Source: Owenia fusiformis
Taxonomy: Eukaryota; Annelida; Polychaeta; Sabellida; Oweniidae
Assembly (NCBI GenBank): GCA_903813345.2
Contig: CAIIXF020000008.1
Location: 23,668,822 to 23,732,821 of the forward strand
DNA: 64,000 nt
Direction of reading: 5' to 3'
Shown here: piece after piece, positions 644-12,754 of the stretch
How the letters are laid out: the number at the start of each line of letters is the position of its first letter
Numbering within the stretch: position 1 is the stretch's first letter
The notes under the pieces: generated by a model
The model's database searches: none
What the model saw: the letters and a program-made list of their open reading frames with translations, nothing else
Told to the model about the DNA's origin: nothing
Program-made: the position numbers and the translations under genes

Positions 644-3600
644 TATCTATGTTGTCCATGATGAAGTAAAGGATAAGAACTTTGAGCTGGAGCTGAGCTG
701 GGTAGGAGAAGGTGAGCAAAATTATCCTTTTTTAAAAAAACATTAGAATGAAAAGCACATTTTCTCTATAAGTTTTAAAGAGGCTTATAGCCTTTTTAAT
801 TTTTCGTGAAGCCACTCAGTAAAGTTACTATTTCTCTGCAACCTGATGTCCATTGAAGATCATTCAAGTATCCCTGTGTTCCTGACACGTTTGGGTGTCC
901 GGGAATGACAACGTCAACCCGAAGTTTGCATGTGAAAATGATGTAATTCATGACTGAAATGGGGAAGACAAAATTTGAGATTCACAAACAAAATTGTTTG
1001 TGAACACTATTTACAAAACTGTTCCAGAGACTCTAATCTACTTGGCTAAGGTTTTATTTGAAGATACATTGCCTTATTAGCAGGTAGACGGGCATATACT
1101 TAGAACACGGAAGCAAATGCTCTGTTGAAAATTTTCTTTATTTCAGTTCGAACATGTTATTACATGTCACGTAGGCCAGTGTTTTATTCACAGGAAGTTG
1201 TATCAAGTCCTTTATGGGCCCAACAGAGCTTTTTGCCCTTCCCCACTTACAGGATGGGGGGGGGGGGCAAAACCCCATAAAGGCCCAAAAAGGACTTAAT
1301 ACAACTTCCTTTGGTTTTATATGGGGATTATATGTACTATACTTGTTTACATGACCATAAATCATTACATGTCTAGGTTTTATCTGGGTTTGTATTGTCT
1401 TATTGGTTTTCCGACTTTAAAACAAACCTTACCAAAATGGATTTGTGTCTCGCGAACATTTTTGTAAATAGTTATTATAAATAATTCTGAAAGAATATCA
1501 CATATTTGTCTTCCTGATTTCAGTCATGAATTCCATCAATATAGCACACATCTATATTTCACGTGCTTTTAAGGACATATCTGATAGAATTTCGACTGTC
1601 AATATGACCTAGGAAGACACACTGACTATTAATTATCCCATCGAACGAAGTTCGGAGGGATATAGGGAACGCCTCCGTCCGTCCGTCCGTACGTACGTCC
1701 GTCCGTCTGTCCGTCCGTCCGGGCAATAACTCAAATACCGTTGGCCCGATTTTGTTCATATTTTGTACACATATACCCTATGGGGGTAGAAGTTCTGCTC
1801 GAAAGCCGATTTTCAAAATTGCCGCTCATTTCAAAATGGCGGCCATTTTAGTGCCGATTTTACAGTAATTTAGGTACAATATGTAAAACTGTAATAGCAA
1901 TATGTTTTAAGTGTAAAAAAATTATAAAGGACATTAATAAAGCTACAAATGTAGATATTAAAAAAAGCACATGGCAGCCATCTTGAAAAATGGCGGCCTT
2001 TACTCGTTATTTTACGATTTTTGCTGTAACTCAAAAAGTAGTGGAGCGATTTTGTTCATATTTGGTATGTGAATACTAAAAGCATGGCACACTGTCCTGT
2101 GACACTTTTGGTAGAAGGCGGCCATTTTGAAAAAAAATTTGAAAAATGGCTGCCATTTTAACATATTTTACTATAACTCGAAAAGTAGTGGAGCGATTTT
2201 GTTCATATTTGGTATGTGAATACTATAAGCATGGCACACTGTCCTATGACACTTTTGGTAGAAGGCGGCCATTTTTCAAAATGGCCGCCATTTTAACGTA
2301 TTTTACTATAACTCGAAAAGTAGGGAAGCAATTTTGTTCATATTTGGTATGTGAATACTATAAGCATGTCACATTGTCTAATGACACTTTTGGTAGAAGG
2401 TGGCCATTTTGAAAAATGGCTGCCATTTTAACGTATTTTACTATAACTCGAAAAGTAGTTCAGCGATTTTGTTCATATTTGGTATGTTTCATATTTTATA
2501 TGTGAATACTATAAGCATGGCACATTGTCTAATGACACTTTGGGTAGTAGGCGGCCATTTTGAAAAATGACCACCATTTTTACGTTTTTACTATAACTTG
2601 AAAAGTAGTGAAGCGATTTTTTCATATTTGATATGTGAATACTCACGAGCCTTGCACACTGTCTCATGACACTTGGATAGTAGGCAGCCATTATAAAAAA
2701 TGGCTGTCATTTTTACATTTTTTACTTATTTCACAAGTACATGTGTGCGATTTTTCAAAAATTTTATAGATGGCTACTAAAAGCATATTATTTCTTCTGA
2801 TGACAACTTGGCTAACCATTTTGAAAATGGTGGCCTTTCTGGTGTGTTGTTTTATGATATTTGCTATAAATTTCGTTTGTAAAATGCCAGCCATTTCTGT
2901 TCGATGGGATTCACTACGCTTTGGCGTTGCCGTTGTTCTGGTTTGTTGTAAAACTGAACTTTAATTTTAACCAAACACTAATTTTTGTAATGCCTGTAAC
3001 TTTTTTTCCATTTGTGAGTTGAACCGTGATACTTGGCAAATCAATGTAACTTTGGACGAGCTTTAAAATGATGTATTACATACCTAGCGAAGCATTTGTA
3101 TGGAAGTCAATGGAGCTGAAGGTCGGCTATATATTCCTGTATAGCCGCCAAACTTTTTTACCATGACAACTTTGTGACGTCATAACATGTAAACAAAGTG
3201 ATTTCGACTGGAATTGTGTAAAATTTTGGTCTTTTTTCATGTATTTCAACATATTATCTTTATGAAATGTTATGTAAATGTACTTTAGGTATGTAATACA
3301 ACAATTATGTCCGTATCATTGAATATATGCCTTCGGTCCGTCGTCAATATAACCTTCGCAAGCTCAGGCTATATTGACGTCCGACCTCAGGCATATATTC
3401 AATGATAGGGACATAATGGCTAAATATGACACATACTATGAGGACATTGGTATATGTCTGCCTAGGGGGGGGGGGGGGCATACTTTAGGGAATCCCTGTA
3501 TAATGCACCAACAAATTAGTACATGGGATTCTGTTTTGATTACATTCCAATATAATGACTGACATTGAAATATTAAACGGGTCCTTAACCTTTGCAACTT

Positions 3601-10783: not shown

Positions 10784-12754
10784 ATGTCCCCACGACATAG
10801 TGTGGGGCCATATTGTCGGCCTAGGCGCGTCCGTCTGTCTGTCCGTCCGTCCGTCCGTCCGTCCGTCCGTCTGTCCGTCCGTCTGTCCGTACGTCCGGGA
10901 GTTTTCTCCAAAACCGCTACAGATATCACCTTCAAATTTTCAGGGATAACTTATGAGTGCATACAGATGTGGATGAAAAAATTTTAATTCGATACCTACT
11001 TCCTGTCGGCCATTTTGAAGTCAAATGCTAAAATCCTTGTCTGCAAACTTTAAGAAAAACGGCTTCACAGTTGCTTTTAAAACTTAAAATCTTGTTCAGC
11101 TCACTTCATTCTAGATCTGATTAGGTTTTGGACCTGTTAGCTCAGTCATGTCAGCCATTTTGAATGTCTTAAGAAAAGTTAGCGCCCGATAATTCTTTGT
11201 ATCATATTGAATGGTGTTTTTGAGTTTTCATACTTTAACTATTTAGTAGCTTTATAAATAATTTCAGATGTACTTTGTTGTAAAAGCCTATGTTATTGTT
11301 AACAGTAGTTATATGTGATAATTTTGTAAGAAGAAATCAGCAAAAACACATAATCACTTTTTTATTGTCGGCCATTTTGGATTTTTCCGTCCTAAAATCT
11401 TGTCTGTGAAGTCTTGTCTATGTGTTTTCAGGTGAACCGTTTGGTAGATCAATTTCAAATTTTCAGGGATGATTCTTAGTATAAAAATCTAGATCTGATT
11501 TGTTTTTTGGCATTCTGGGTAAATGTCAAGGCAGCCATTTTGGATTTTCCGTCCTAAAATCTTGTCTGTAAAGTCTTGTCTACGCGTTTTTAGGTGAACC
11601 GTTTGGTAGATCAATTTCAAATTTTCAGAGATGATTCTTAGTATGAAAATGTAGAACTGATTAGTTTTTTGGCATTCTGGGTAAATGTCAAGGCAGCCAT
11701 TTTGGATTTTCCGTCCTAAAATCTTGTCTGTAAAGTCTTGTCTATGCATTTCCAGGTGAACCATTCTGTAGATCAATTTCAAATTTTTAGGGATGACTCT
11801 TAGTATGAAAATCTAGATCTGATTTGTTTTTTGGCATTCTGGGTAAATGTCAAGGCAGCCATTTTGGATTTTCTGTAAAGTCTTGTCTATGTGTTTTCAG
11901 GTGAACCGTTTGGTAGATCAATTTCAAATTTTCAGAGATGATTCTTAGTATGAAAATCTAGATCTGATTTGTTTTTTGGCATTCTGGGTAAATGTCAAGG
12001 CAGCCATTTTGGATTTTCCGTCCTAAAATCTTGTCTGTAAAGTCTTGTCTACGCGTTTTTAGGTGAACCGTTTGGTAGATCAATTTCAAATTTTCAGAGA
12101 TGATTCTTAGTATGAAAATGTAGAACTGATTAGTTTTCTGGCATTCTGGATAAATGTCAAGGCAGCCATTTTGGATTTTCTGTCTTAAAATCTTGCCTGT
12201 AAAGTCTTGTCTACGTGTTTTTAGGTGAACCGTTTGGTAGATCAATTTCAAATTTTCAGGGATGATTCTTTAAAGTGTGAAAATCTACATCTGATTAGTT
12301 TTTTGGCATTCTGTGTAAATGTCATGGCAGCCATTTTGGATTTTCTGTAAAGTCTTGTCTACGCGTTTTCAGGTGAACCATTTGGTAGATCAATGTCATA
12401 TTTTCAGGGATCATTCTTAGAATTTTTAGTATGAAAATCTAGGAACAGATTAGTTTTTTGACATTCTGGGTAAATGTCAAGGCAGCCATTTTGGATTTTC
12501 CATCCTAAAATCTTGTCTGTAAAGTCTTGTTTACATGTTTTCTAGTTAACTGTGTGACGGATCAATTAAAAATTTTCAGGGTGGTTCTTAGTTTGAAAAT
12601 CTAGAATTCACTAAATTTTTGGCATTCTGCATTCTGTCTGGGTAAATTTTAAGGTGGCCATTTTGGATTTTCCGTCCTCAAAGTGTGTTGGTAAAGTCTT
12701 GTCTACTCATTTTCAGGATAACCATTTCATGGGATCACCCATTGGTGGGGACAT
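10784..12754 (+). mobile_element. F3 element with TIRs and about 175-bp tandem array
   Basis: Termini ATGTCCCCAC (10784-10793) and GTGGGGACAT (12745-12754) are perfect 10-bp inverted repeats. A GTCC-rich run lies at 10827-10900. From about 11350 to 12700 a unit of roughly 175 bp repeats about seven times: AAAGTCTTGTCTACGCG, GGTGAACCGTTTGGTAGATC, TTTTCAGGGATGATTCTTAG, TTTGGCATTCTGGGTAAAT, then GGCAGCCATTTTGGATTTTC. It encodes no protein and looks non-autonomous. No clear target duplication was found. Confidence 0.75.

What the first reader, a model, noticed from the sequence alone, without database searches (positions are those of the whole stretch)
1634..12754. Three repeat families share one design and a YY1/Pho-like box
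F1 (about 135-bp units), F2 (about 155 bp) and F3 (about 175 bp) have unrelated unit sequences. Yet each has a GTCC- or GGCG-rich head, inverted termini or opposed arms, and one box per unit reading GCGGCCATTTTGAA, GGCCATCTTGCATTC or GGCAGCCATTTTGGA. That box is close to the known YY1/Pho site (GCCGCCATTTTG / AAGATGGCGGC). The window thus holds dozens of such boxes at even spacing in introns of a housekeeping gene and a sulfatase. The box could be a protein-recruitment site kept by selection, or a relic of common ancestry of the three families.
Basis: partly seen in the sequence, partly recalled or inferred. Interest (0 to 1): 0.8.

Follow-up and report, generated by a model that had tools for sequence, protein, structure and literature searches.

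The report
Jumping-gene repeats carrying YY1-like boxes
Three sets of repeats in an animal genome turn out to be sister families of rolling-circle jumping genes, and the piece they have kept best over time looks like a docking site for the regulatory protein YY1, which if confirmed would mean these jumping genes scatter many regulatory docking sites through the genome.

Summary
The repeats and the box are real. The window holds 108 GCCATNTT boxes (13-23 expected) and 52 GGCNGCCATNTT (under 1 expected). The host genome holds 4005 exact GCCGCCATTTTG against 3 for the reversed string.

F1, F2 and F3 are not unrelated. With boxes removed, F2 and F3 align along the unit, and a fourth family found here (F1b) links F1 to F2; 0 of 5000 shuffles match either link. 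Heads and tails have HINE anatomy (non-autonomous Helentrons): 5' subterminal repeat with an adjoining inverted copy, microsatellite, tandem units, 3' subterminal repeat, hairpin, TT target, no clear target duplication.

So the box is inherited, not convergent, among F1-F3. Between families it is the most conserved stretch. Within families its core is better conserved than matched bases in 4 of 4, at P below 0.05 in 2; it tops the ranking only in F3.

The host has a clear YY1 ortholog. The box also occurs in a cut-and-paste MITE, another dispersed family and isolated sites. YY1 recruitment is the best guess for its persistence (about 0.4); binding is untested. Mouse LINE-1 Tf monomers are a known parallel.

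The parts
1634..2941 (+). F1 HINE element, complete: TAT start, subTIR, IR, microsatellite, degenerate head unit, about 5 units of ~135 bp, 3' subTIR, hairpin, CTGG end, followed by TT
1635..1661 (+). F1 5' subTIR ATCCCATCGAAC (1635-1646) and complementary IR GTTCGGAGGGAT (1650-1661)
1674..1721 (+). F1 tetranucleotide microsatellite (TCCG)n
2899..2927 (+). F1 3' subTIR GTTCGATGGGAT (2899-2910) and hairpin ACGC-TTTG-GCGT (2916-2927)
4121..5420 (+). F2 array remnant, interrupted by the F2' element
4400..5237 (+). F2' HINE element nested inside an F2 unit: 10-bp subTIR GCACTTTGAA/TTCAAAGTGC, IR AAAGTGC, GGGC-rich head, 145-bp units, CTTG end, then TTAGATAAATC of the broken unit
6269..7865 (-). 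F2-type array, opposite orientation, 11 GCCATNTT boxes on its own strand, 0 on the other
7980..8290 (+). F1 fragment with 2 boxes
9748..10010 (+). F3 head fragment (TGTCCCAACCACATAGTGTGGGG); downstream end not defined
10783..12776 (+). F3 HINE element: 10-bp subTIR ATGTCCCCAC/GTGGGGACAT, IR, (CGTC)n, head unit, 162-bp units; 3' subTIR at 12745-12754; the last 22 bases of the 3' end are inferred
11371..12675 (+). F3 tandem array with GGCAGCCATTTTGG boxes on the element strand
17393..19380 (.). Two F1 elements head to head (minus then plus) sharing a microsatellite centre, 5' subTIRs not found, both tails outward; in a sulfatase intron
38925..39950 (+). F2 array with ATATTGTCG head and GGCGGGC-rich stretch; double boxes 19 bp apart
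40631..41345 (+). Second F2 array on the same strand

Best explanation
F1, F2/F2' and F3 are sister families of HINEs, the non-autonomous partners of Helentron rolling-circle transposons. Shown: they have HINE-type ends, and F1/F1b HINE-type target sites; their tandem units descend from one ancestral unit of about 140 bp, linked by family F1b; that unit held a TTCAAATTTT segment and a GGCNGCCATNTT box, and the box is the stretch best preserved between families. Inferred: a Rep/helicase supplied in trans copies the elements by rolling-circle transposition and multiplies the units, which spreads the box. Inferred, about 0.4: the box lasts in source lineages because host YY1 binds it, so the array acts as a multi-site YY1 platform, opening or tethering the element in the germ line (as in mouse LINE-1 Tf monomers) or marking it for Polycomb-type control (as in mariner silencers). 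The stated confidence is for the HINE and common-ancestry part.
For: HINE anatomy: TTAT before the subTIR in 30 of 34 F1/F1b heads (42 rows found, 8 reverse-strand echoes dropped); CTRG or CTTG end in 30 of 33 tails, followed by TT in 26 of those 30; in 23 head-tail pairs the longest shared flank is 3 bases (TTA, 4 of 23). F2' sits inside an F2 unit at a T-rich junction. Box-free homology: F2-F3 score 82, F2-F2' 68, F2'-F3 64, F1-F1b 46, F1b-F2 42, each reached by 0 of 5000 shuffles; the F1 head also aligns with F2 (30, shuffled maximum 28, 0 of 1000). Box-free HMMs of F2 and F3 recover each other's units. The box block has pairwise identity 0.90 over five families against 0.41 over all columns, next block 0.78; for F1, F1b and F2 alone 0.86 against 0.81. 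GCCAT core substitution against base-matched sites: F1 0.058/0.075, F1b 0.099/0.172, F2 0.104/0.161, F3 0.000/0.083. 58 Helitron_like_N matches, 35 of them in open frames of 2000 codons or more, four of four scanned with DUF6570 plus Helitron_like_N. YY1 zinc fingers 96% and 85% identical in two pieces at C8:14265561-14266390; the other listed matches are 39-56% identical (150 of 2273 candidates scored).
Against: No autonomous element with matching ends was found, because the element ends lie outside the loci held. F1 joins F2 mainly through F1b: direct F1-F2 similarity is within chance (279 of 5000 shuffles reach it), as are F1-F3 (1114) and F1-F2' (4706). Within F1 the box is not exceptional (P 0.23; ranks 70 and 117 of 153 in window units). 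The block comparison between families uses an alignment that the box itself helps to anchor. CpG in the box is mostly decayed (15 GGCGGCC against 43 CA/TG forms of 72), so most copies no longer carry the full GCCGCC sequence. No ChIP, footprint or expression data. The host name is unknown.
Confidence: 0.82

Rival explanations
1. The box is only a neutral relic of common descent: it survives because the ancestral unit had it and these families are young.
For: Common descent is shown. Within F1 the box is not distinguishable from matched sites (P 0.23) and it is not the top-ranked segment in F1 or F2. The other conserved segment (TTCAAATTTT) is no YY1 site, so a non-YY1 reason for segment conservation exists; in the F1, F1b, F2 comparison it comes close (0.81 against 0.86).
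Against: Between all five families the box outlasts the rest of the unit (0.90 against 0.41 mean identity), and core substitution is below matched sites in 4 of 4 families. A cut-and-paste MITE, another dispersed family and isolated sites carry the same 12-mer.
Confidence: 0.35
2. The box is a binding site (iteron) for the Helentron Rep/helicase or another transposon protein, repeated to help replication or capture of the element.
For: It is repeated in each unit, on the element strand only in the seven F2-type and F3 stretches counted in the window (0 opposite-strand boxes in each), often in pairs 18-19 bp apart (101 of 130 same-strand pairs under 60 bp, in the window plus 60 loci mostly chosen for the box).
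Against: The 12-mer also sits in family B, which has 21-bp terminal inverted repeats and exact 9-bp target duplications in 5 of 5 copies with both ends found (of 8 loci) and so uses a different enzyme, and at isolated sites. HINE ends, where such proteins act, differ between families while the box does not.
Confidence: 0.12
3. F1, F2 and F3 took up the box independently (convergence), as the first reader's wording 'unrelated unit sequences' implies.
For: F1 and F2 units have no direct box-free similarity above chance (279 of 5000).
Against: F2 and F3 align along the unit, and F1b joins F1 to F2 (0 of 5000 each). The double box with 19-bp spacing is shared by the F1 and F2 consensuses.
Confidence: 0.06

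Closest known systems
Cg_HINE elements of Crassostrea gigas (PMC7492417; abstract, Results and first part of the Discussion read, plus a term search) and the pearl elements cited there
   Same: 5' subTIR with complementary IR, GTCC-type microsatellite, short arrays of 140-180 bp units in fixed orientation, 3' subTIR plus palindrome, TT target, no target duplication. Some families share whole units, and one shares only two conserved unit segments with them.
   Different: Other unit families. The terms YY1, Yin Yang and binding site do not occur in its main text; its sequence figure is not held, so whether its conserved segments resemble the box could not be seen. Here one box is the best-conserved segment across five unit families.
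DINE-1 and mite HINEs, Helentron superfamily (PMC4067079; abstract, Background and two Results sections read, plus a term search)
   Same: subTIRs, 3' hairpin, T-rich target, central tandem repeats in some; DINE-1-like elements are said there to supply binding sites for the Drosophila MSL complex.
   Different: Different sequences; YY1 not named in its main text; link to an autonomous Helentron not shown here.
Mouse LINE-1 Tf 5'UTR monomers (PMC11602158; passages read)
   Same: Tandem monomers with a GCCAT YY1 site; YY1 sites are reported to drive synergy between monomers, and GCCAC is reported not to bind.
   Different: Retrotransposon promoter with tested function; here a non-coding rolling-circle element and no experiment.
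Mariner silencers (PMC4777549; abstract and YY1 section read)
   Same: DNA transposons with YY1 sites, tied to Polycomb-type silencing.
   Different: Sites lie in the transposase gene, not in tandem arrays; other factors act with YY1 there.

Membership tests
HINE (non-autonomous Helentron) | subTIRs of about 11-15 bp, the 5' one with a nearby complementary IR | tested here: met
   F1 ATCCCATCGAAC/GTTCGATGGGAT (12 bp) with IR GTTCGGAGGGAT; F3 ATGTCCCCAC/GTGGGGACAT (10 bp) with IR GTGTGGGGCCAT; F2' GCACTTTGAA/TTCAAAGTGC (10 bp) with IR AAAGTGC; F2' and F3 are slightly short of the published range
HINE (non-autonomous Helentron) | 3' palindrome or stem-loop near the end | tested here: met
   F1 ACGC-TTTG-GCGT folds; F3 folds elsewhere and the F2' tail fold is weak, -2.0 kcal/mol, so shown for F1 only
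HINE (non-autonomous Helentron) | Insertion in TT or T-rich sequence without target duplication | tested here: met
   F1/F1b: TTAT in 30 of 34 heads, TT after 26 of 30 scored tails (33 found), longest shared flank 3 bases in 23 pairs. F3 and F2 not testable with the few copies held
HINE (non-autonomous Helentron) | Microsatellite then tandem units in fixed orientation | tested here: met
HINE (non-autonomous Helentron) | Ends shared with an autonomous Helentron encoding Rep/helicase plus endonuclease | not tested
YY1/Pho binding site | Sequence GCCATHWY or GCCGCCATNTTG | tested here: met
   Pho pattern GCCATHWY read in a passage of PMC6735708; the 12-mer form is recalled and from the finding
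YY1/Pho binding site | Host has the protein | tested here: met
   two pieces at C8:14265561-14266390, 96% and 85% identical to recalled human YY1 zinc fingers
YY1/Pho binding site | Occupied by YY1 in cells or bound in vitro | not testable with these tools
   no such data held
TIR-type MITE (cut and paste) | Terminal inverted repeats at the very ends and target duplication | tested here: not met
   F1: the 3' inverted repeat is followed by about 30 bases of hairpin and tail, and no shared flank over 3 bases in 23 pairs

The most novel reading that the evidence does not exclude
Central repeats of this HINE clan are portable YY1 arrays: a rolling-circle transposon lineage has kept a host YY1 site as the core of its tandem unit, convergent with mouse LINE-1 Tf monomers and with a cut-and-paste MITE in the same genome, and has laid down clustered YY1 platforms by the hundred or thousand in introns and between genes.
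Probability: 0.27. Interest if true: 0.75.

Novelty: new variant of a known kind. Interest (0 to 1): 0.5.

Why it matters
HINE central repeats are reported from many invertebrates and are linked to satellite DNA, yet why particular units persist is unknown. A conserved host-factor site in the unit would give a testable reason for their success and would make these arrays a large source of clustered YY1 sites for the host. If binding fails, the case shows how a shared motif in dispersed repeats can look like convergence when it is ancestry.

Tried and rejected
Splice-donor idea: three isolated boxes (L039, L070, L085) seemed to be followed by GAAGGTA or GTAGGT, suggesting first exons. Genome-wide, box plus AGGTA within 3-12 bases occurs 5 times, the scrambled ATGGA 6 times: rejected.

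Degenerate-position idea: GCCGCCAT(A/C/G)TTG occurs 2085 times (reversed control 11) and the G form is rare among the 100 listed, which looked like the Pho rule GCCATHWY. The five ATATTG places read are one young repeat family, in a stretch that by eye is open to translation, so copy number confounds this; not used as evidence.

CpG-rich promoter idea: CpG observed/expected at nine isolated sites is 0.33-1.16, against 0.29-1.1 for the middle 80% of window tiles; no support.

Within-array conservation as the deciding test: array copies are too recent for it to be decisive, so it was supplemented by comparison between families. The box sequence in papers: six 13-mers gave 8 papers, none on repeats by title and abstract start. 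Unit strings: none. YY1 with Helitron and binding site: 5 papers, none on YY1 boxes in Helitrons by title and abstract start. Searches were seen as listings only, except the papers named.
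Full report
Observation. Box counts are far above Markov expectation. Four other repeat stretches of the window that I checked (59107-60338, 62311-62579, 35531-35864, 20560-20690) hold no GCCATNTT, so the box is not a property of tandem repeats in general. In the host genome (498,259,871 bases, 525 contigs) GCCGCCATTTTG occurs 4005 times, the reversed string 3 times. Outside the elements masked the window still has 23 GCCATNTT in 53,574 bases against 6.5 expected from base composition; two of the 23 lie in the F1 fragment 7980-8290, which was not masked.

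What the elements are. F1 starts TATCCCATCGAAC, has the complementary GTTCGGAGGGAT a few bases on, a CCGT microsatellite, a degenerate first unit, the array, GTTCGATGGGAT, a hairpin and CTGG, then TT. In the window and 60 further loci, the head search gave 42 rows, 8 of them reverse-strand echoes; of the 34 left, 30 have TTAT at the start. Of 33 tails, 30 have a scorable end, and 26 of those are followed by TT. In 23 head-tail pairs the longest shared flank is 3 bases (TTA, in 4). F3 and F2' have the same plan with other letters, but their 3' hairpins are less clear and too few copies were held to test their target sites. F2' lies inside an F2 unit, at GTTTT/TAGATAAATC, which also gives its ends to within a few bases. 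These are the features of HINEs as read in PMC4067079 and PMC7492417.

Are the families related? With boxes cut away, local alignment of unit consensuses gives F2-F3 82, F2-F2' 68, F2'-F3 64 (highest shuffled scores 30-34). A sister family seen in the sampled loci, F1b (units of about 145 bp, subTIR ATCCCACCGAAC), gives F1-F1b 46 and F1b-F2 42, each reached by 0 of 5000 shuffles. Direct F1-F2 is not significant (279 of 5000), nor F1-F3 (1114), F1-F2' (4706) or F1b-F2' (909); F1b-F3 is weak (23). The F1 head aligns with F2 at 30, above the shuffled maximum of 28 (0 of 1000). So the link from F1 rests mainly on F1b.

How conserved is the box? Within families by sliding 8-mer it ranks 33 and 79 of 142 (F1, 97 units), 70 and 117 of 153 (F1, 14 window units), 17 and 39 of 154 (F2, 23 window units), 1 of 148 (F3, 8 units). 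The non-CpG GCCAT core has fewer substitutions than base-matched sites in all four families, P 0.23 (F1), 0.013 (F1b, 68 units), 0.061 (F2), 0.037 (F3). Units share ancestry, so these P values are optimistic, and most F1 and all F1b units come from loci chosen because they hold an exact box. Between the five family consensuses the block GGCNGCCATNTT has pairwise identity 0.90, the next block TTCAAATTTT 0.78, the mean 0.41; for F1, F1b and F2 alone the two blocks are 0.86 and 0.81. F1 and F2 consensus units carry two boxes 19 bp apart; 18-19 bp is the commonest same-strand spacing (101 of 130 pairs under 60 bp). CpG sites are worn: in units, 0.21-0.39 substitutions at CpG outside the box against 0.06-0.15 elsewhere, and 43 CA/TG against 15 CG in the 72 boxes of the form GGNNGCCATNTT, which fits germ-line CpG methylation (inference).

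Where else is the box? One search listed 100 of the 4005 places, all on contig C1; they form 83 groups, of which I fetched the first 60, holding 72 exact sites. 44 lie in or within 30 bases of F1-type units (the model also takes in F1b), 2 in F2/F3 units, 26 in neither. By sequence the 26 are: one F1 head, six copies of family A, eight of family B, two identical places (L036, L037), and nine isolated, though L070 and L085 share 35 bases around the box and L039 has a repeat nearby. Of the eight B loci, five have both ends, each with a 21-bp inverted repeat (16-21 positions matching) and an exact 9-bp target duplication, so B is an unrelated cut-and-paste element of about 300 bp. The class of A was not settled. 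Of three isolated places searched, two match only themselves genome-wide, and the third matches elsewhere only in part. With a rough guess of 2 Mb of transposon consensus (a guess, no call), chance would put the 12-mer in well under one family, so A and B suggest a reason for the box beyond HINE ancestry, without proving it. The F2 unit search found 1772 candidate places genome-wide, of which 40 were scored, giving 222 matches.

The protein. A recalled human YY1 zinc-finger stretch finds one clear ortholog in two pieces on C8 (96% and 85% identity); the other matches listed are 39-56% identical, with 150 of 2273 candidates scored. That makes similar site preference likely. Mouse LINE-1 Tf monomers are the nearest working model: a GCCAT site in the monomer, synergy between monomers (PMC11602158, passages). 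Mariner silencers show the opposite outcome (PMC4777549, abstract and one section).

Host. About 12 large contigs (judged from the positions listed) and 498 Mb resemble Owenia fusiformis (505.8 Mb, 12 chromosome-scale scaffolds; passages of PMC9977687). This is an inference only; no sequence test of identity was made.

Verdict. Ordinary in architecture (HINE), mistaken on unrelatedness, right that the box stands out. The step from conserved box to YY1 platform is inference.

Noticed in passing
window 17393-19380: Two F1 elements lie head to head sharing one microsatellite centre, both 5' subTIRs not found and both tails outward with TT flanks, as if moved as one inverted dimer.
   Followed up: partly
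window 4400-5237: A HINE (F2') has inserted into a unit of another HINE array (F2); the broken unit gives a natural empty site.
   Followed up: yes
window 59107-60338 and 62311-62579: A different tandem family (133-bp and 476-bp periods) followed by an ATCCT microsatellite; no box.
   Followed up: no
window 12832-13880: Open stretches that by eye resemble a decayed Tc1/mariner-type transposase; no Pfam match for 12832-13113.
   Followed up: partly
L040, L043, L053, L081, L082: Family B: MITE of 299-305 bp with 21-bp terminal inverted repeats and exact 9-bp target duplications (Mutator-like mode, recalled), carrying GCCGCCATTTTG.
   Followed up: partly
L091-L095: Young dispersed repeat (95-99% identical in the five copies read) with GCCGCCATATTG in a stretch that by eye is open to translation; probably explains much of the ATATTG count.
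   Followed up: partly
L001-L030: 58 Helitron_like_N matches genome-wide, 35 in open frames of 2000 codons or more; four of four scanned also have DUF6570 upstream: candidate autonomous rolling-circle elements.
   Followed up: partly
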